A DNA stretch of 64,000 nt from Tremella fuciformis. Its lineage: Eukaryota; Basidiomycota; Tremellomycetes; Tremellales; Tremellaceae. The notes beneath the pieces were generated by a model that saw only the letters and a program-made list of their open reading frames with translations, had not been told where the DNA came from and searched no databases. How positions within the stretch are numbered: position 1 is the stretch's first letter; each line of letters starts with the position of its first letter. Below, piece by piece: positions 1 through 17,792 of this stretch. The position numbers and the translations under genes were made by a program. The stretch covers positions 1 to 64,000 of the forward strand of contig CP136496.1 of NCBI GenBank assembly GCA_032768795.1, written 5' to 3'.

Positions 1-231
1 TAACCCCCTAACCCCCTAACCCCCTAACCCCCTAACCCCCTAACCCCCTAACCCCCTAACCCCCTAACCCCCTAACCCCCTAACCCCCTAACCCCCTAAC
101 CCCCTAACCCCCTAACCCCCTAACCCCCTAACCCCCTAACCCCCTAACCCCCTAACCCCCTAACCCCCTAACCCCCTAACCCCCTAACCCTCCCACCCCT
201 AACCTGCCTAAACCCCTAACCCTCCTAAGGT
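1..231. repeat. Telomere repeat array (TAACCCCC)n
   Basis: Bases 1-189 are perfect tandem copies of TAACCCCC (about 23 units). From 190 to about 231 the unit decays into variants such as CCTAACCCTCC. The C-rich strand reads 5' to 3' into the chromosome, so this is a left chromosome end. The 8-base TTAGGGGG unit is the one known from Cryptococcus, which supports a tremellomycete source. Confidence 0.98.
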
Positions 232-2410: not shown

Positions 2411-2505
2411 TCCAAGATAAGATAGTGGTGGCAAATGATGTCATGATTCCCGGTGAGAATGAGATAAGATAGAGGTGGCAAAAGATAAGATAGGGGTGGC
2501 AAATG
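2411..2505 (+). promoter_or_regulatory. Three AGATAAGATA (double GATA) boxes
   Basis: The module AAGATAAGATAGNGGTGGCA occurs three times (about 2414, 2462 and 2482) some 230-320 bp upstream of the ATG at 2736. Each holds two overlapping GATA-factor sites. Fungal GATA factors control nitrogen, iron and light responses; which of these applies cannot be told from sequence. Confidence 0.5.
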
Positions 2506-2558
2506 CTGTGGAGGTCTTGAAGTGGACTTGTGAAGTGGAGGCGACAAGAGACGGCAAA

Positions 2559-2655
2559 GTGCCACACTTATAACTCCTATAACTCCGAGCGGAGGTGCCA
2601 CATTCTATAATCCCTCATAACTCCGATGAAAGACCATCACTCAGATATATAAACC
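2559..2655 (+). promoter_or_regulatory. GTGCCACA boxes and TATA box before the Lys/Glu-rich gene
   Basis: GTGCCACACTTATAA (2559) and GTGCCACATTCTATAA (2595) match the 40-bp repeats found downstream of the same gene. A TATA element (ATATATAAA, about 2645-2653) follows. Next comes a C/T-rich leader, a typical fungal 5' UTR, up to the ATG at 2736. Confidence 0.6.
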
Positions 2656-2735
2656 CATCTCCCTTCCTTTTTGATCTCTCTTCCATACTTCTTCTTTTCC
2701 TCATCCACCTTCAACACTCTTCAACACTCACCAAC

Positions 2736-3242
2736 ATGACAACCTACTCTGGCACTCTCACCATCACCTTCCAAGGCCAGGTAATCACCACCCCAGCAAC
2801 CTTTGTGCTCAACAATCAACCAGACCCACCCTCTACTCCAGCAACCTTTTTGCTCAACAATCAACCAGACCCACCTTCTACTCCAGCAACTTCAACTCCA
2901 GCAGCTCAGCCTTCACCAGCTCCCTCAGCTACACCTTTGAGGGAGGTCACTGTCAGAGAGAGGATCCAGCAGATCATTGACATGGACAAGAAGAAGAAGA
3001 AGGAGAAGGAGAAGGAGAGGAAGAAGAGGGAGAAGCAGAGGAAGCAGAAGAGGAAGGAGGAGCAGGGGAGCTTTGGGTTCCCCTGGGGCAAGAAGGTAGG
3101 AGAGATGACAGAGGAGGAGAAGGAGGCCTTCAGGAAGTACAACAGAGAGAGGAAGATGAAGATCAGGAATGACAAGGATGAGAAGCTCAACAGGAATGCA
3201 AGGACCAGGGGACTGGGGAGGAAGAACTTGGGCACAGCCTAA
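2736..3242 (+). CDS. Lys/Glu-rich subtelomeric protein of unknown function (168 aa)
   Basis: A single-exon frame of 168 aa starts at the first ATG after the TATA box and C/T-rich leader (context CACCAACATGAC). The N-terminal third is Thr/Pro-rich and holds an imperfect duplication (TPATFVLNNQPDPPS and TPATFLLNNQPDPPS). From about residue 70 it becomes a highly charged, probably helical segment with long K/E/R runs, then a conserved-looking stretch with GFPWGKKVGEMTEEEKEAFR. Lys is almost always AAG and Glu GAG, so codon use is strongly biased. I do not recognise the family; a nucleic-acid-binding or nuclear role would be inference from charge only. It is bracketed by GTGCCACA boxes, so gene and boxes may be one repeated unit. 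Confidence 0.65.
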   Translation: MTTYSGTLTITFQGQVITTPATFVLNNQPDPPSTPATFLLNNQPDPPSTPATSTPAAQPSPAPSATPLREVTVRERIQQIIDMDKKKKKEKEKERKKREKQRKQKRKEEQGSFGFPWGKKVGEMTEEEKEAFRKYNRERKMKIRNDKDEKLNRNARTRGLGRKNLGTA

Positions 3243-3418
3243 GTACTACATAGAGACTGGACAAGAGGTTTCCCAGGTTTCACCTCCCAGTTGTTTGTAG
3301 TTTTGAGAGTGGCCTGGACACCACCTCCTATGCATTTCAACATGCATTGACCATAAAAGACCTTCAATGAAAGAGAAGAGTGGACTTAGAGAATGGAAGA
3401 GTGTGAGAAGGATTGAAG
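3243..3418. other. 3' flank of the Lys/Glu-rich gene
   Basis: This probable 3' UTR shows no further gene and leads straight into the 40-bp repeat array. Confidence 0.5.
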
Positions 3419-3595
3419 GTGCCACACTCTATAACTCCTTGAAACTCCGGTGTCTCAAGTGCCACACTCTATAATGCCTTGAAACTTCGGTGTCTCAAGT
3501 GCCACACTCTATAATGCCTTGAAACTCCGGTGTCTAGAGTGCCACACTCTATAATGCCTTGAAACTCCAGAGCTCAGACTGCCACACTGCGATAC
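3419..3595. repeat. 40-bp tandem repeat, four units
   Basis: Units start at 3419, 3459, 3499 and 3539, with a decayed fifth at 3579. Each begins GTGCCACACTCTATAA and continues with a CCTTGAAACTYCGGTGTC block. The opening box matches the two boxes upstream of the 168-aa gene. Confidence 0.9.
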
Positions 3596-4594: not shown

Positions 4595-4915
4595 GGAATG
4601 GGACATGATGGAATGGGAAATCTCTATGAAGATGGGACATGTGCAGCGGGACATACCCGACGGGACACGGATGTGGGACACGGACATGGGACACGGGACG
4701 TGGGACATTGGGGCATCGAGACATTGGGACATTTGAGATGGGACATCAAGACATTGGGACATTTGAGATGGGACACAGGTCATTGGGACACTGGGACATT
4801 TGAGATGGGACATGGGACAAGGCCACGGGACACGGGACATTGGGACACGGGACACGGGACATTGGGATGCGGGACATTGGGACATTGGGACATGGGATAT
4901 GGGACATAGGACTTA
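4595..4915. repeat. One-directional GGGACA array upstream of the OTU gene
   Basis: About 17 TGGGACA copies plus CGGGACA variants are packed at 6-20 bp spacing, all in the same orientation. Longer words such as ACATTGGGACATTTGAGATG repeat within it. It ends about 175 bp before the ATG of the OTU gene, so it lies in the promoter region. Confidence 0.85.
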
Positions 4916-5088
4916 GAGGTTTCATCCTCACTCAAGTCCAGCCATGGGACCAGTCTTAACAGACTTGTGGGACTTTTCAAAATACACATCAGAATTCTCT
5001 CAGACTCAGAGGCAAAAAGTACTTAAGCAACAGACTTTTGGAAGAGTCCCCCCCTTCTTCTTCAATTGCCTCTCTACCTTTTTTCACC

Positions 5089-7618
5089 ATGGCTCCAGTC
5101 AAATCCAGTCATGTCCCAGCAGTGGGACAGCTCAGACAATCAAAGAGACTACTGGGACACCCACCTTCAGTGTCACCTTTTCCTTCACAGGTGAGTCTCT
5201 CACAGCTTTACTGACTTGACTGACCATCAAGACTCCTGAGTCTGTCCCAGTCCCAGTGGGACAGGTGGGACAAGTGGGACACTCTCTGCCACCAGCTGAA
5301 CATGCTGAGGCTGTTGAGGAGGTGAGCTCTCATGACTTGTTCTCCACACAGAGCTGACAGATGCAGCAGCCAGTGCAGGTGTCCCAGCCAGACTTCATGT
5401 CCCAGCTGTGGTCAATGTCCCATGTCCCACTGGAAGAGTATGGGACACCTCTGGACAACATCATTCAGAGTCCATCTGATGTGGACAAGTGGGAAATCTG
5501 CATGACTCCAGCTTACTATGGCAGGCAGTTCAACTCCTCTCTGGCACTTGTCAAGTTGTCCAGTCACAGTCCTGGGACACTGTCCCACTGGGACAATGGG
5601 TCAAACAGGGACATCTTCAAGGACTGGCTTCTACTTGCAGAGGCCACTCATCAGATCTGGGTGGACCCAATCTACAAGGATGGCTTCTACAGGGAGCTCA
5701 AGGTATGGAGGACTGTCTCACCTGCAGATGTCCCATGGGTCTCAACCTATGGTGCTCCCAATGTCCCAGTGGCTCTCTTCATCCACTGCCTGGAGAGCTG
5801 CAAATGTCCCACACTGCTGGTCAAGTCATATGGTCAGAAACTTCCTTTCAACTTCCTTGGGACTGAACCTGCACAGCTGTCCCACCCAATGTCCCACTAC
5901 AACATGTGGGACATAGGTGTCACCTTCAAGTCACCCTACATCTTCCTCTTCACTCCAACTCTGGGAAGATCCAAGCTGGCTACCACCTATCCCATGCTTG
6001 TCCCACTCTCCAAGGATCATGGCTCACTGCACCTAGATGTCCCATTCAATGGGACAACCTGGAAGGTCAAGATCTATCCCAGACTTGTCCATGTGATCAA
6101 GTCTTACAACAGCAGACTTCAAGGGGACATTCTCAGAACCATGGCTGGGGTGAGAAAGAGAGTGGAAGCCTGTGACAAAATCATCAAGAGACTGGGACTT
6201 GTCCCAGACTGGGACATGGGTGGCTTCAGAGTGGAAGTCACTGTCCAAGCTACCTCTCTAGCTGCTGCCAGGAGAACTGTAAGAGAACTTCCTTTCTTCT
6301 ACATTGACTTTTGGCAGGATCCACTGGGACATGGGGGACAGGCTGGGACAGAGTCATGTCAAGTCACCTTCAAGGTCACCACCAAAGATGCTCTACTGGC
6401 TAATGCACAGTGGATGTCCCACAAGGCCTGGGACTCTGGCCTCTTGGTGGGTGGGGCCTTGACTCAACCAACCAGCAGACAGAAGCAAGTGGTGGCAGAT
6501 GTCCTGGCCTCACTTGGCTGGAATGCTGGGAAGAAGGCTCCAACCAAGTCCCACAGTCCCACTGCCTGGTGGATGACTGGGACTGGGACAGACACTGGGA
6601 CATATGACTTGGGTGGGACAGTTATGAACTTCAACTCCATACTGTCCCATCTCAAGAAGTCCTACAGTGGTCCCAGTGGACTCAAGACTCTCATCAAGAT
6701 ACTCAGAGACAAGAGCAGTCTTGGCTATGTCCCATGCCAGAGGGACAGGTCCCACAGGTATCATGCCAGTGGGACAAAGCCAGTCAGGTTCAGATGTGCA
6801 AACAAGGTCTGTGGTCATTCTATGCAGGAGGCTGCTGCTTGGCAGTGGTTTGCAAAGTTGGTGGATGAGGGACATGTCCCATTGGAGGCTGTGGGACTCA
6901 ACCCACTGGGAGGTGCAAGGGACAATGGGACAAGGGACAGTGGGACAGGAGGGAATGGGACAAGGGTGAATGGGACTTTGGAGATTGGGGCACAGACAGC
7001 TGTAGCTGTGAAGACAGTGAGTTGAACTTTGACTTGAGCTCCACTGACAACAGGCTCCTACCACCACTGGGACACCACCCTCACTCATGTCCCATCCAGG
7101 ACTGGGACTGGTATGTCCCACTGAGACAGAGCCCTCACTGACTGCAGGCACCTCTCAACACAATCACCAGTCTCTCCAGAACACAAGTCAAAAGAGTCCC
7201 ATTTGTCCCATCACTCTACCACACCACTGGGACAAAGGCAGATGGCAGCTGCATGTTCAGAGCTTTTGCACAAGGTATGAGGATGAGGCAGTCCCACCAG
7301 GAAGTGAGGCAGACAGCTGTGTCCCACATCAGAGCCAACTGGGACAGGTATGTCCCATTCATCCTTGGGGGGCAGGATGAGTGGGACCTCTACCTGCACA
7401 ACATGGCACTGTCTCACACCTGGGGGGATCATCTCACTCTTCAGGCCTTGTGTGAAGCCTATCATGCTCATGTCATGGTCTTGAAGGTGTCCAGGTCAGG
7501 GGACACTGGGACATGGATGGAGCTAGGGGACAGGGACATGCCTGGGACAGCCTTCTGGCTGTGGCTCAAAGACAACCACTATGAGAACTTAGTCACCAAC
7601 ACACAGATTATAGGATAG
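5089..7618 (+). CDS. OTU-domain cysteine protease-like protein, 791 aa, five exons
   Basis: Exons: 5089-5190, 5232-5321, 5361-7016, 7054-7110 and 7148-7618. All four introns are 37-41 nt, obey GT-AG, and restore one frame of 792 codons. The start has good context (TTCACCATGG). The C-terminus is an OTU (ovarian tumour) deubiquitinase-like domain: the catalytic loop D667-G-S-C670-M-F-R, a WGDHLTLQALCEAYH segment, and the catalytic His in DNH779YENL. The N-terminal 630 residues match no family I know. They include a possible zinc site near the C-terminal part of exon 3 (CQRDRSHRYH, then CANKVCGH) and Gly/Thr-rich NGT repeats. OTU proteases remove ubiquitin-like proteins, and some eukaryotic transposons also carry them. 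Protein words such as SHVP, WD, MSH and GT mirror the underlying heptamer read in different frames. Confidence 0.85.
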
Positions 7619-7739
7619 ATAGTCAAGTCCCAGTCAATGGGACAATGTCCCACAGCAATGAAAAAAATTCTCTAAGTTGTTTGAGTGTGTCAATGTCCCG
7701 CTCCCACTGGGACATTTGCTGGGGGGAATGGGACATGAT

Positions 7740-8619
7740 TGATGCAGACTAAATGAACTATTTTGGGAATTGCTCCGCAAATACTGCACCCCCACAGGAT
7801 CCGAAAGAAGATCTGAACTCGGCTCAATCAGAGCTATTGAATGGTATAGCTCATGCCTCTCTGGGTGCAGTAGGTCAAAATCCCCCGCCCCCCGAAACCC
7901 CATATAACCCTAGAGCGACGGGAAGAGAATATGACATTCTAGACATGATTTCCAGAGGTCACCGCAGTGGTACCTGACGAACGGACTTATGTGCGGAGCA
8001 GGATCAAGCCCCATCAATCTGGACCCTGAGAGCCTTTTGCTTAATAGCGCAGAGAGTACCGCAGATAGAAGAGATTGGAAAAGACGAGTGCAATCGTGGA
8101 AAGCAGACGATACGCGTGATGGTGCACAGACCCACCGCAAAGGCATGGCAAGCGAGCTATGGAAACACATGATCTAAGGGTCACCCCAGATGCAGATTTT
8201 TGAGCTGATTCCGAATCTGTCCTTATTTTTACTGTATCTTCAATATTGACGGAGCTATCAAGCAAAAACCACCTGGAAAGTCGAATTTCAGTGTTACGGG
8301 TGGAGCCGTGCATGAGAAACATTTTCGCTACTTGGCCCGTGCTAGTATGATGAAAGAGGGGGGTCTGAGGTATACTCTACCGCCAGGAAAAGCTTGCGGG
8401 TGTGATCAATATTTATGAGCGGAGCCCAATAGACGGGTAACTTTGAAGGTTGTATACGGCAATGAACAGAAGCCAGGCGACCAAGGAGAAGTGAGAGAGT
8501 CATTGAATGGCATACATATGAGTCAGAACAGACACTATAGACGACAACCAGATACTAGGATTACTTGTTTTTGAAGTTTGCTACAAATACTGAGCATGCG
8601 CAAGGGAACTTTTGAAGAG
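7740..8619. other. Noncoding gap between OTU gene and next gene
   Basis: I find no supported gene. It contains CCCCATATAACCC (7898-7910), the second copy of the word at 4177, within a C-rich stretch. The short open frames show no domain signs. Confidence 0.5.
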
Positions 8620-12255: not shown

Positions 12256-15200
12256 CTACAGGTTGTTCTGGTCTATGACCCTGGCAAGGAACCAATGAGC
12301 TGCCACCCAGACATGGTGGATGGGCACATTGCTCACTCCCCCAAGCCAGCTCTGCCAATCCTCAATCTCCAAGCCCGCCGCCCGCGCGAAAACCTGATAC
12401 TCATCAGACTCCAAGGCAGAGGCCATGAGCTCTGGCAAGAATGAAGGGTAGATGCAGCACCTGCCACTGGATCCCTTGTGGAACCATGAGTCTCCGGATG
12501 GCCAGGGAAACCAGCAGGTGAAGCACATCTGCTTGTTCCCATGGAACTTGGTCCCCTTCCTGAAGCGTTGGGCGACGTCGGGGAGCCAGCCTGGTGGGCT
12601 GCACTTCTGGATCTGGTGGGTCTCAAAGAGCCCCAGAGCCAGACACTTGGGGCATGCCCCCTTGAGCTTTTGCACCTGCAGGTGTAGCTCCCTCATCAAC
12701 TCGGACCTCGACTCTTCCTTTTGCTGTTGGGATGCGGCATCCCTCAGGAGAGAGGTCCTAGGCGAAGGGCTTGGCATCAGGCTCTGGGAGCTTCTGAACC
12801 TGGACTGTCTGCCCTCCAGGCTGGACAGTGACGTCGTCGTCCGGGTCCCAGCCGTCGTCGTCAGAGGGGTCGACAGGGGTGAAGTCATGAATGGCGAGTG
12901 ACCACACCTGGAGCACATCTCATCCCTCCCCCCACACTTTCTCTCCTCCCCATCCATGAACTTTGTGATCCCAGCCCTGAGGCACTGCTTGCCGTTGAGC
13001 ATCTTCTGCAGGTAGTCTGCTCCGAGTCCTGGATTGCCCCACCACAGCTCGAGTCTGATGATGTGACACCATGACTCCTGGCCTTTCCTGCCCACCCTGC
13101 CCATCTCCTGCACACCGTCGACCAGGTTGCTCGGCTCTCCCAGGTGGATGGTCACACGAACAAGGGGCAGGTCCACACCCGCACCCAGTCCACTCGTGCA
13201 CGCCAGCACCCTCCCCAAGATCTCTGCTCTGAACTCCTTGAGGATGTTGTTCTTGTCCCCAAGATCAGAGTGGTGTTGAGGGCAGTCCAGAGCTTCGGAC
13301 ACCATCTGGCAGTCCACCTTGCTCCTGCAGAACAACAGGATTTGATCTCGAGGGTGGAGATGAGGGGAGATCTGCTCGACCGCTTGCCTGGCCAGGACGG
13401 CAATGTTCTCGCTGTTGACGACGGGTGAGGTGCAAGAGTAGTGGATCTCCCCCCTGTTGGTGGACGTCCTGTGTTGGGTGACTTGAGAAAGGTGGAACTT
13501 GCCGAGCAGCTGATCGCTCAGAGTAGGTGGGCAGGTCGCAGTGATGAGCACTTTTGGAGCAGGGATAGCCCTCAGCTTGGCAAGGCCGTCCATCTGAGCC
13601 CTGTAGGTGAAGGACGTGAGGGGGATGTGTGCTTCCTCAAACACGACCCTTGCCTGGGCGTCAGCAGGTGTGCTCTCCAAAGACACACTCACGATCTTGA
13701 TCCTCTTGATCCATTTGTGAAACTGGTCATTCACACAGTTCTCCACGGAGATGAGGATGATCTTGGAGCGTTCGCCAGAGGCAGAGGGGCTCCAGAGCTC
13801 ATGGCTCACCCCATGGGACTCGAGCTTGTGCTTGATGTCCTGCAACAGTGCTGACAGTGGCACAATGACCACCGTCACCATCCCCCTCTCCAATCCGCTC
13901 ATGACCGGCACAAGCCAGAGCAGACTCTTCCCCCCAGAGGTGGGACCGACCATGAGCAGGTTGGTGGCCTTGTCCAGCACGAGCTGACATCCTCGCTCCT
14001 GCCAATCACTCCTCCACTTGGCCCCAGATCCAAACAGCTTCTGTAGACCGGTGACCAGGTTGGCGCTGAGCTTGGTGATCTCTGGGTTGCTGGTCACCTT
14101 GGTGCTGGTGGAAGTGTTGCTCAGGCTGATGAGGCTGAGTCCCAAGGGGGAGGACGAGGAACCGGTGCTGGTGCCGGTGCTTGTGCTCGTCTTTGACAGG
14201 CCCAGCGGTTGCAGTCTCCTCGAGCTCGAAAGGTTGTGTGCCGGTGGCGGCATCTCCATGAACTCGTGCAGCTTTGCTCCCAGCCTGTCGACTTTGCTCT
14301 CCAGTCTTGCGATGAGCTGCCCCATCTTGTCAGACGCTTGAGATGGTGCTTGGTCCCCTCTGATGGCCTGCCTGTCCCCCTGCTCCCTGTCCATCTGGTC
14401 CAGCTTGGCAGAGATCCTGGCCAGGAGGCCCTCCATCTCCACCCCCGCCACAGCTTGATCCTCCTCCTGTCCTTGGAGGAAATACCCAAGCAGGTTCTGC
14501 CATTCCGTGCTGCTCTGAAAGAACAGCAGGAAGGTGGACTCCCCCATGGACATGATGTCCTCCTTGTTCAGGGCATAGTGCTCCTCTGCCGTCCGGGTGG
14601 TGTGACCTGCTTGGATGTCCTGCACAGCCTCTCCATGCTCCAGCTGATTCCTGATGCTCCTGGATTTGAAGATGGCGATGGAGGCATGCCTCCAGGTGGA
14701 CGGGTTGATCCTCGCTCCCAGATAAGAATGCGTCACAGAGCTCAACATCGAGCTGAAGTGATCTTGCTTCATGATGCTGCCGTTGGTGGTGAAAAGGTGC
14801 GAAGAGTGCAGCCTCGATCCTTGGATGTCGTCGATCTTTGACAGGCCAAACACCTCGAACGGTCTCACGTACGCCAGGTAGAGTGTGAGCATCCTCGTCA
14901 GCGAGCAGGGCAGGAACCTTGGCAGTGTCTGCAGTCAGCACCTGATGTTACACCCCCCAAGAGGATCACCTTGTCAAGAGAGGTCTGGTTGCTTCCCTTG
15001 TGATATCTGCCCAAGAGGACGATCCTGCCATTGATGAAGAAGATGTTCCTCAGTCCGGCTTGGGTGTTGGTGAGCTTGTGACTGAGAAGCTCCGTCCTCC
15101 TTGCGGGTGCACCATAGGTCAGGTGGATGAGGCAGATGAGCTTGTCCATGAAGCCGGAACATCTCTGGAGGTACGTCCTGATCTCGTGTGGGTTCCAGAA

Positions 15201-17105
15201 CAGTGTGTCTTCTGTCCTGTATGGGATGAACTTGTCTGGACTGTCAGCACCCCCTAACCCCTAAGAACACACCTCTGAGCACGTCATCCTCTAGGATCTG
15301 CCGGACCAAGGTCCACTTGTTCTCCTTGAATGGGTTGGCGTCATCCTCCAAAAAGTTGTAGCCGACCTCATCCTCTGGGAGGTGATCCACCACCTGAGCA
15401 GGATCCGGATAGTTGAAGCTTTGGATGGGCAGGCCAAGAAGGAGATGCTCCTCAAAGTACTCTGACAGCTCTTTCTCCAGCTGATGCACCCCACTCCTCA
15501 GATTGTCCAGCTTCAACAGCTCCCCATTGACGACGAGCTGTGTCTTCTGCTTGTCTCTCCAGTAGACGGTGGGGAGACCAGGTTGGTGATAGGCCACGTG
15601 GTTGACGAGATGTTTGATCGACAGCAGGCAGGAGAATGGGGAGATGTGACCGTTGTGGAGCAGGGAGATCTCCTCTTTCATCAGACTGACGTCAGCCCTG
15701 TCCTCGGATATCGATCACTCACTCCTCCAGATCAGAGGTCCTGCTCACAATCTCCTCATCCACTCTCATCTGGACCTGCTTGAACACCACCAGCTTGAAG
15801 GCCCACTGAAGCATGGCAATCTTGGGCGTCATCTCGGTGACAGAGTTGAAGTGTCCGTCCGGCTTCAGGTTGGAGAGGGTGTTGAAGCAGATCAGCGGGT
15901 ACAGGTGTGAATCCACCATGGCTTGATAGGAAGATGTCGTGAGCAGGGAGTACGCCAGAGCATGGAACACGGTGTCAAATGACTGTTGATCTTCCCCAGA
16001 TGACAGGATCTTGATCATTTCTTCACAGAGCCTGACCTGCTCTGCAGAGACCTGGATGGGGTAGGAGTGCGCTCGCCCACAGGCCTTCCTCATCAGGAAG
16101 CAGAACAGCCTGCAGAAGTGGAGGCTGTATTTGTCAAAGGTCTCTTGGTTCTGAAGAGCCTTGAAGGGTTCGTGTGAGACTCTATGTGATCAGCTTGGCC
16201 TTTCTCTGCAATAAGAACTGACTCTGTGGGTGTCTCAGAGTTCAGCAGATGCAGGATCAACTGCTCTGGGTTCTTTTTGATCCTCTCCTCAATGTCCATC
16301 AGGTATTGCCTGCACATCTTCTTCATCCTGTGCAACAACTCCTCATCAGATCCTGGTTTGGCCACAAGTCCGACAAGCTCCTTGGCATCCTGTCCTTCCA
16401 CATGTTTGAACCATCCAAGCCTTCCCATCCATGAGGCCTGCTCGTGCTCTGCCCCCTCCTTGATGATAGACGATCTGTCCACAGGAGGGAGTGACCGGAG
16501 GAACATCAGGTAAGGTGTGATCCCAGAGATCGCATCTTCCGATGGCTGGACAGGGAAGAACTGTCTGTTGCCTTGGTGGTAGATCGTTTGGAGAGCCGTG
16601 TTGGTATGGTTGCGGTGATAAGGTTGACCTTTGTGACTGGTGGTGAAGTGATTCTTGATGCTGCTCGTCGCAGTGCAGTGGTAACTGCACAGGTTGCAGG
16701 ACAGGCCGGGCTGGATGGCAAGCAGAGGGAGAGATATGATCGGCAACCCGTTGGGGAAAGCAGGGATCTCCGGATGCTGGCCAGGGTGACTGGGATACGC
16801 AGAGAGCATCTCCTTGATCACCTCATCCTCGACCTTTTTGTTGTGAGAGTCAAGGAGGTGACCTATCAGGTGTTCACCCCTGACTCCCTGCTTGCATTTC
16901 ATGCAGGTGTAATACTTGAGCAATGAATGATACCCATAGCCAAGGGACTCAAACCCCTCAGGTATGGTCAGGGGAATGTCATAGAAAGATTGGTCTGAGT
17001 GTCAGTCAGAGCAGAGCCAAGAATGCACTCACCGTGTGCTGTGGGAGAACATGACAGCAGCTGGATTTCATCTCCACAGTCTGTCTCTGGCTGAGAGTCG
17101 TCCAT
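12256..17105 (-). CDS. Telomere-linked helicase: zinc fingers, tyrosine-recombinase-like core, RecQ helicase (1551 aa)
   Basis: Six exons (17105-17033, 16994-16223, 16181-15723, 15685-15273, 15235-14970, 14928-12256) joined by 37-41-nt introns give 1552 codons with no break. The N-terminus has two C2H2-like fingers (CMKCKQGVRGEHLIGH; CNLCSYHCTATSSIKNHF), as in fungal DUF3505 proteins. Residues about 600-780 show a tyrosine-recombinase layout: GAPAR618RTEL (box I), YHK652, W-R741-H, GH770TTR and Y779, with His-to-Tyr spacing of nine. A coiled coil follows (about 820-890). The helicase carries TSGGKS (about 991-996), FEEAH in place of DEAH (about 1091-1095), TATCPP and QEMGRVGRKGQ. The C-terminus has Cys-rich clusters. 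RecQ-type helicases at chromosome ends are a known fungal family (TLH), thought to help telomere recombination. The gene runs toward the telomere. Confidence 0.9.
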
Positions 17106-17220: not shown

Positions 17221-17792
17221 GGGATGCGGAATCCGTGGAAAGCACACCATCCACGGGCTCGTGGACGGAGGTCCCTCGTGGAAACCAAAAGTACTCCCGC
17301 AAATCCGTGGAAAAGGGCAAGTAGTCCCACGGTTTCGTGGAAAGTAGTCCCCCGGTTTCGTGGTGAGTACTCCAATGTTTTCGTGGAAAGAGCGAGGTAT
17401 CTCCACAAATTCGTGGATCCGGTCCAAGGACTCCCACGAATTCGTGGAGGGGGGTCCAAGTACTCCCACGAATTCGTGGAGGGGGGTCCAAGTACTCCCA
17501 CGAATTCGTGGAGGGGGGTCCAAGTACTCCCACGAAAGTGAAGGGGGGGTCCAAGTACTCCCACGAATTCGTGGAGGGGGGTCCAAGTACTCCCACGAAT
17601 TCGTGGAGGGGGGTCCAAGTACTCCCACGAAAGTGAAGGGGGGGTCCAAGTACTCCCACGAATTGGAGGATGGGGGGTCCAAGTACTCCCACGAATTCGT
17701 GGAGGGGGGGTCCAAGTACTCCCACGAAACCAAAGGAGGGGTCCAAGTACTGAGTACTTGGGGGGGTCCAAGTACTGCAGAATATTGTTAGG
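17221..17792. repeat. Palindromic satellite, centromere-proximal copy
   Basis: About 14 units of CCAAGTACTCCCACGA followed by ATTCGTGGAGGGGGG lie here. Units near 17250-17430 are diverged, while those at 17450-17720 are nearly identical; some replace the right half with AAGTGAAGG. The array ends with the same AAGTACTGAGTACTTGG and CTGCAGAATATTGTTAGG block as the copy at 1.4-1.5 kb, in the same orientation. The last base (about 17792) abuts coding sequence of a broken transporter gene. Confidence 0.92.

What the first reader, a model, noticed from the sequence alone, without database searches (positions are those of the whole stretch)
4595..7739. A heptamer (TGGGACA/TGTCCCA) saturates a whole gene, exons and introns alike
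I counted about 70 exact copies in 3.1 kb against fewer than one expected. Upstream (4595-4915) all about 17 are in one orientation; from 5100 on both orientations mix. In exons the word falls in all three codon frames (giving VP, SH/GH, WD/CP or GT), so the constraint acts on DNA or RNA, not on protein. It also lies in the small introns and 3' flank. Possible roles: binding sites of a self-encoded or host factor, a methylation or self/non-self mark, homology-seeding for recombination, or spread by a copying process. I know of no described eukaryotic gene with this pattern.
Basis: partly seen in the sequence, partly recalled or inferred. Interest (0 to 1): 0.92.

Follow-up and report, generated by a model that had tools for sequence, protein, structure and literature searches.

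The report
Genes saturated by lineage-specific DNA words
Near the chromosome ends of a jelly fungus, members of one gene family are each peppered, protein-coding parts included, with their own short DNA word, as if each gene had rewritten itself as a landing strip for a protein that reads that word, perhaps its own.

Summary
TGGGACA/TGTCCCA occurs 70 times in 4599-7735 (2.1 expected, shuffle maximum 8): 17 upstream in one orientation, 46 in exons, 3 in an intron, 4 in the 3' flank. Synonymous, codon-order and dipeptide shuffles do not reproduce it.

The new result is in the paralogs. The host genome (probably Tremella fuciformis) holds diverged copies of this gene (unknown domain plus OTU protease). 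Related copies are saturated by other words: TGCTGAC (29 copies, 1 TGGGACA) and GGGGACA (20, 0); two further classes carry none. Words sit at non-homologous positions and, in this gene, at less conserved residues, so they look independently gained. Inference from protein alone finds TGTC-core words in seven homologs from elsewhere, among them Tremella mesenterica and Trichosporon asahii; their DNA was not seen.

Best reading: a selfish subtelomeric gene family whose product binds its own word, the two co-diverging around TGTC, with binding plus OTU deubiquitination countering silencing. This would work like plant VANC/VANDAL anti-silencing, with an unrelated protein and with exons saturated. 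Binding and anti-silencing are inferred. Rivals: initiator sites, a host factor, RNA structure.

The parts
1..228 (.). Telomeric repeat (TAACCCCC)n: the window is a chromosome end
4599..4906 (+). Upstream array: 17 TGGGACA in one orientation, partly tandem, with CpG-containing variants (CGGGACA)
5089..5190 (+). Exon 1 (proposed), 3 words
5232..5321 (+). Exon 2 (proposed), 4 words
5361..7016 (+). Exon 3: domain without Pfam match (AlphaFold pLDDT 85; core 92), 32 words; proposed reader of the word
7017..7147 (+). Intron 3 (GT..AG), 3 words
7148..7618 (+). Exon 4: OTU cysteine protease domain (Pfam E 1.4e-13), Cys codon 7250, His codon 7577, 7 words
   Evidence: catalytic motif recalled
7638..7735 (.). 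3' flank, 4 words in both orientations
4872..7698 (.). Stretch without a single CpG
7745..7910 (.). Terminal segment shared with the C5 copy (99%) and present inverted at both ends of the C9 copy; similarity of the window copy to both C10 copies stops at 7910

Best explanation
The word is the recognition site of the protein that the gene itself encodes (exon 3 domain). The gene is a selfish, subtelomere-dwelling element; its product coats its own gene from the upstream array through the exons, and its OTU domain removes ubiquitin there, keeping the gene active in a compartment that the host methylates and silences. Word and reader diverge together around a shared TGTC core, so each lineage ends up saturated with its own word. 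Shown here: saturation beyond protein-preserving controls, different words in paralogs, non-homologous word positions, a predicted OTU enzyme. Inferred from protein only: TGTC-core words in seven foreign homologs.
For: Saturation not explained by protein, codon usage or dipeptides. Paralogs saturated by other words: A, B, C word counts 49/0/4 in the A gene, 1/29/2 in B (C9), 0/15/1 in B (C10 piece), 0/0/20 in C. A and B words coincide no more than by chance and A's lie at less conserved residues (0.433 against 0.568, circular-shift P 0.002): added on a working protein. Near-misses are graded as for a binding site: TGGGACT 13, AGGGACA 6, GGGGACA 4, nine of the 21 single changes absent. Balanced orientation in the A body, 28:25. 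TGTC in excess in A, B and C (85 against 42, 62 against 32, 32 against 14). Protein-only inference: 8 of 8 proteins with z of 9 or more (A and seven foreign relatives) have a TGTC-core word, a class that is 3.1% of words. CpG loss with TpG/CpA excess (1.39 and 1.60 with words masked), a C5-methylase locus and Argonaute matches fit a silenced compartment; the A ORF is intact in its three copies. Plant precedent with family-specific, dense motifs read by an element-encoded protein: PMC5735166 and PMC10398659, passages.
Against: No binding, methylation or expression data. Class D and E genes of the same family have no word and normal CpG with open frames, so the protein need not be tied to a word. 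CpG loss is not special to the word gene: ORF 2583-3242 has CpG o/e 0.11 without a word. Orientation in class C is not balanced (16:4, P 0.012). With family background subtracted the foreign words are less clean: P0001 falls to 3.4 and P0007 has a non-TGTC word at 6.3, while shuffled proteins reach 7.1. B's true word, though ranked first, reaches only z 7.5, no more than a control ORF (7.4). The exon 3 domain has no confident structural match.
Confidence: 0.45

Rival explanations
1. Iteron-like or transposase-like sites: the exon 3 domain is a replication or transposition initiator and the word its site; many sites raise copying or capture of the element between chromosome ends.
Confidence: 0.2
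2. A host factor reads the word: nucleation of heterochromatin, recombination control or a transcription factor that the element exploits.
For: Arrays of the words also lie at C7:1588093-1588422 and C5:360609-360725 (surroundings not examined).
Against: One genome carries at least three words in three branches of one gene family, which would need several host readers or one lax one; the TGTC core in other species (inferred) follows this family.
Confidence: 0.13
3. RNA-level role: complementary words make the transcript fold on itself, or are sites for an RNA-binding protein.
For: Two 900-base coding stretches fold more strongly than 60 synonymous shuffles each (z -5.3 and -4.6).
Against: Folding follows from two complementary words in any case; folding alone needs no single word; words also fill the upstream region, an intron and the 3' flank.
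Confidence: 0.1
4. Mutational spread (slippage, gene conversion or copying) without function.
For: The upstream array is tandem, and the B exon has an in-frame insertion built of word repeats.
Against: Body copies share almost no flanking similarity (6.38 against 6.02 of 24; pairs with 14 or more identical 0.7% against 0.2%), keep the frame open and avoid conserved residues.
Confidence: 0.05

Closest known systems
VANC/VANDAL sequence-specific anti-silencing of Arabidopsis (PMC5735166, PMC10398659; passages read)
   Same: Short family-specific motif at high density, partly in one-orientation tandem repeats, diverging between related element families that encode related proteins.
   Different: There the motif lies mainly in non-coding regions and exons lack it; here 46 of 70 copies are exonic. 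Protein unrelated by Pfam scan; OTU domain fused; fungus. Binding and loss of methylation are shown there, not here.
Iterons and rolling-circle replication initiators (iterons: start of an abstract, PMC12548392; initiators: structures 4cij, 4cwc, 4cwe)
   Same: Repeated short sites upstream of a gene that may encode a DNA-binding protein; weak structural resemblance of the domain.
   Different: Sites fill the exons; no sequence match; catalytic activity unknown.
Helentrons with OTU genes (PMC4067079; passages read)
   Same: Mobile elements that carry an OTU cysteine protease.
   Different: No Rep/helicase domain found in this gene; OTU fused to another domain.
OTU deubiquitinases
   Same: Pfam OTU match with Cys and His present.
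   Different: Fused to a domain that I found only in this family; the relatives with a species name are Tremella mesenterica, Trichosporon asahii and Kwoniella heveanensis.

Membership tests
VANC/VANDAL | VANC-type protein (Pfam relationship) | tested here: not met
   Exon 3: 0 Pfam families at E up to 1; 32 relatives: only OTU, C65, one CxC7 and one CCDC158 match at E up to 0.1. Direct comparison with VANC sequences not made
VANC/VANDAL | Dense family-specific motif with tandem arrays | tested here: met
VANC/VANDAL | Motif mainly in non-coding parts | tested here: not met
   46 of 70 copies in exons
VANC/VANDAL | Encoded protein binds the motif and removes methylation | not testable with these tools
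   needs binding and methylation assays
OTU deubiquitinase | OTU domain with catalytic Cys and His | tested here: met
   Pfam 1.4e-13; residues present (motif recalled); activity not tested
Rolling-circle initiator (Rep_trans) | Initiator fold | tested here: inconclusive
Helitron/Helentron | Rep and helicase in the same protein | tested here: not met
   Exons 3 and 4 show only OTU/C65 in Pfam
DNA transposon with inverted ends | Terminal inverted repeats and target-site duplication | tested here: inconclusive
   155-bp inverted ends (96%) in the C9 copy; none upstream in the window copy; duplication not examined

The most novel reading that the evidence does not exclude
A eukaryotic gene family whose members write the binding code of their own protein through their own exons: each lineage evolves a new word around a TGTC core, and the amino-acid sequence is bent to fit the code. 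Self-recognition embedded in coding DNA would be a new kind of genetic self-mark, able to tell one selfish lineage from another and from the host.
Probability: 0.4. Interest if true: 0.95.

Novelty: new variant of a known kind. Interest (0 to 1): 0.88.

Why it matters
If true, a protein can be shaped along its whole length by a DNA code that its own product reads. It would be a fungal counterpart, by an unrelated protein, of the sequence-specific anti-silencing known from plant VANC, extended into exons. Several reader-word pairs with one core would be natural material for learning how a DNA-binding protein changes specificity. Candidate words can be read from protein databases alone, so the reach of the phenomenon is testable at once.

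Tried and rejected
Copying or slippage as the source of body words: flanks not alike. Even, nucleosome-like spacing: not found (A: P 0.155 and 0.187; C: 0.364 and 0.453; B less even than chance). Homologous word positions: 8 alignment pieces were compared, the output was cut and 7 results were visible; none shows an excess (P 0.24 to 1.0; longest A/B piece 4 against 3.3 expected), apart from one inverted pair kept in register, read in the alignment. Own words in D and E genes: none at 7-mer level; E has 7 CCGACA against 1.2 expected and TGTCGGT-rich repeats beside it, suggestive only. DNA of foreign homologs: a viral-contig scan matched 15 stretches, none a relative; no fungal collection was at hand. 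Word inference was run on 31 of 36 family proteins; P0032-P0036 came later and were not scored. The tree used 33 rows (A, B, D, E and the 29 relatives of 460 aa or more). Foldseek against PDB and viral structures gave no match at E 0.001. Literature: the eight searches listed no account of exons saturated by a gene-specific word; I saw titles and starts of abstracts, plus passages of PMC5735166, PMC10398659, PMC10696834, PMC12730594 and PMC4067079.

Full report
WHAT IS THERE. TGGGACA/TGTCCCA occurs 45+25 times between 4599 and 7735 and 14 times in the rest of the 64-kb window. The stretch starts about 4.4 kb from a telomere. My gene model has four exons with GT..AG introns in phase 0 and codes for 772 aa. 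Words: 17 upstream, 3+4+32+7 in exons, 3 in intron 3, 4 in the 3' flank. Exon 3 has no Pfam match at E up to 1; exon 4 is an OTU protease domain with Cys and His in place.

CONTROLS. Dinucleotide shuffles of the region give 2.1 words (maximum 8), against 70. For the two large exons, synonymous shuffling gives 7.7 (maximum 15), codon order 0.9 (maximum 5) and dipeptide-preserving shuffling 4.6 (maximum 12), against 39. Twelve stretches were tested for their top 7-mer: the four of classes A, B and C stand far above 40 shuffles each; the eight others (five class D and E genes, two ORFs of the neighbouring helicase locus, one unrelated stretch) do not exceed theirs.

PARALOGS. The own genome has 28.1 Mb in 11 contigs. 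Size, contig number, largest contig and telomere repeat fit Tremella fuciformis as described in PMC10696834 (passages); the species is my inference. There are 27 matches to exon 3, 21 of them within 30 kb of a contig end, and 28 to the OTU exon, 25 within 30 kb. Class A: three copies, 99.6-100% identical, intact, with TGGGACA. Class B (C9, C10, C4; aligned pieces 46-62% identical, one 53-aa piece 34%; broken or partial) with TGCTGAC, often TGCTGACA. Class C (cut by the end of contig C5; 52-54%) with GGGGACA, often TGGGGGACA. Classes D and E (about 37-41%) with none. Class B repeats the architecture: upstream array mostly in one orientation (15:3), mixed body (12:21); class C is 16:4 and 8:5.

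INDEPENDENT GAIN. In codon alignments A and B words coincide no more than by chance (4 against 3.3 for the longest piece; none of the 7 visible piece results shows an excess; the output was cut). One inverted pair is kept in register in different words (TGTCCCA-GAC-TGGGACA in A, TGTCAGCA-A-TGCTGAC in B). Word codons of A's exon 3 lie at less conserved residues: mean 0.433 against 0.568; 10 of 82 against 110 of 426 are highly conserved; circular-shift P 0.002. The words look laid over a working protein where it could bear them.

OTHER SPECIES. A search of 5.8 billion proteins gave 31 relatives, and 36 with a profile; the named ones are from T. mesenterica (two), Trichosporon asahii and Kwoniella heveanensis. 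I scored each 7-mer by how likely the protein's tripeptides are to encode it, against shuffled proteins. Forty-four proteins were scored (A, B, D, E, 31 relatives, 9 controls). For A the top word is ATGTCCC, its true word shifted by one base, with TGGGACA second; for B it is GTCAGCA, the true word, but at z 7.5 only, level with one relative and one control. Eight proteins reach z 9 or more, A and seven relatives, and 8 of 8 have a word with TGTC; such words are 3.1% of all. Of the other 36, one top word holds TGTC (P0020, z 4.9). Words: P0003 T. asahii GTTGACA, P0009 T. mesenterica GTGGACA, P0010 ATGTCCC or AGGGACA, P0013 GTGGACA, P0014 GTGTCCA, P0006 GTGGACA or GTTGACA, P0001 T. mesenterica ATGTCCC. 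With family background subtracted P0014, P0013, P0003, P0009 and P0010 stay near the top, but P0001 falls to 3.4, and P0007 shows a non-TGTC word at 6.3 while shuffled proteins reach 7.1. The K. heveanensis protein shows no such word. In the tree word-bearing rows lie in one half, mixed with wordless rows (3 changes; 0 of 500 shuffles as low), and sister rows differ in word (A/B, P0001/P0009, P0013/P0014).

CpG. 4872-7698 has no CpG, and the 35 Arg codons of the large exons are all AGR. TpG and CpA are in excess with words masked (1.39, 1.60), as methylation decay would leave. Bodies of classes B (C9, C10) and C are CpG-poor, C4-B less so (about 0.3); D and E genes are not. But ORF 2583-3242 is CpG-poor (0.11) without a word, so CpG loss marks the compartment or its gene bodies and does not prove the mechanism. 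A C5-methylase locus and Argonaute matches were found.

MOBILITY. Similarity of the window copy to both C10 copies stops at C7:7910; one C10 copy starts at C7:4777 next to telomeric repeats. 7745-7910 recurs in C5 (99%) and, inverted at both ends, in the C9 copy (155 bp, 96% between them). The window copy shows no such repeat upstream.

MECHANISM. Balanced orientation in the A body, graded tolerance of near-misses and lineage-specific words with one core point to a reader of double-stranded DNA that changes with the gene; the simplest candidate is the encoded protein. Anti-silencing is the effect I find most likely, by analogy with VANC, from the CpG-poor compartment and the OTU domain; it is not shown. 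The transcript also folds more strongly than synonymous shuffles (z -5.3 and -4.6), which complementary words would cause anyway. An initiator or transposition role is the main rival.

Noticed in passing
2583-3242 (+): ORF starting MTTYSGTLT, lysine-rich later part; CpG o/e 0.11 over 2450-3420 with no word.
   Followed up: partly
12256-17001 (-): Subtelomeric gene region with OrsD match, DEAD and Helicase_C domains and a stretch that resembles a tyrosine recombinase (recalled motif, read); CpG o/e 0.39.
   Followed up: partly
1133-1506 and 17403-17751: Tandem repeats with a 32-bp palindrome-like unit (CCACGAATTCGTGGAGGGGGGTCCAAGTACTC) on both sides of the word gene.
   Followed up: no
G000:C7:1588093-1588422 and G000:C5:360609-360725: Internal arrays of the words TGGGACA and TGCTGAC; surroundings not fetched.
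   Followed up: no
L010, L013: Class E genes lie beside tandem repeats of about 196 bp rich in TGTCGGT; the E gene has 7 CCGACA against 1.2 expected: perhaps a weak or young word of the same core.
   Followed up: partly
L032, L015: The C9 class B copy ends in about 0.45 kb 93% identical to the class A 3' end, with A words: a recombinant between word classes.
   Followed up: no
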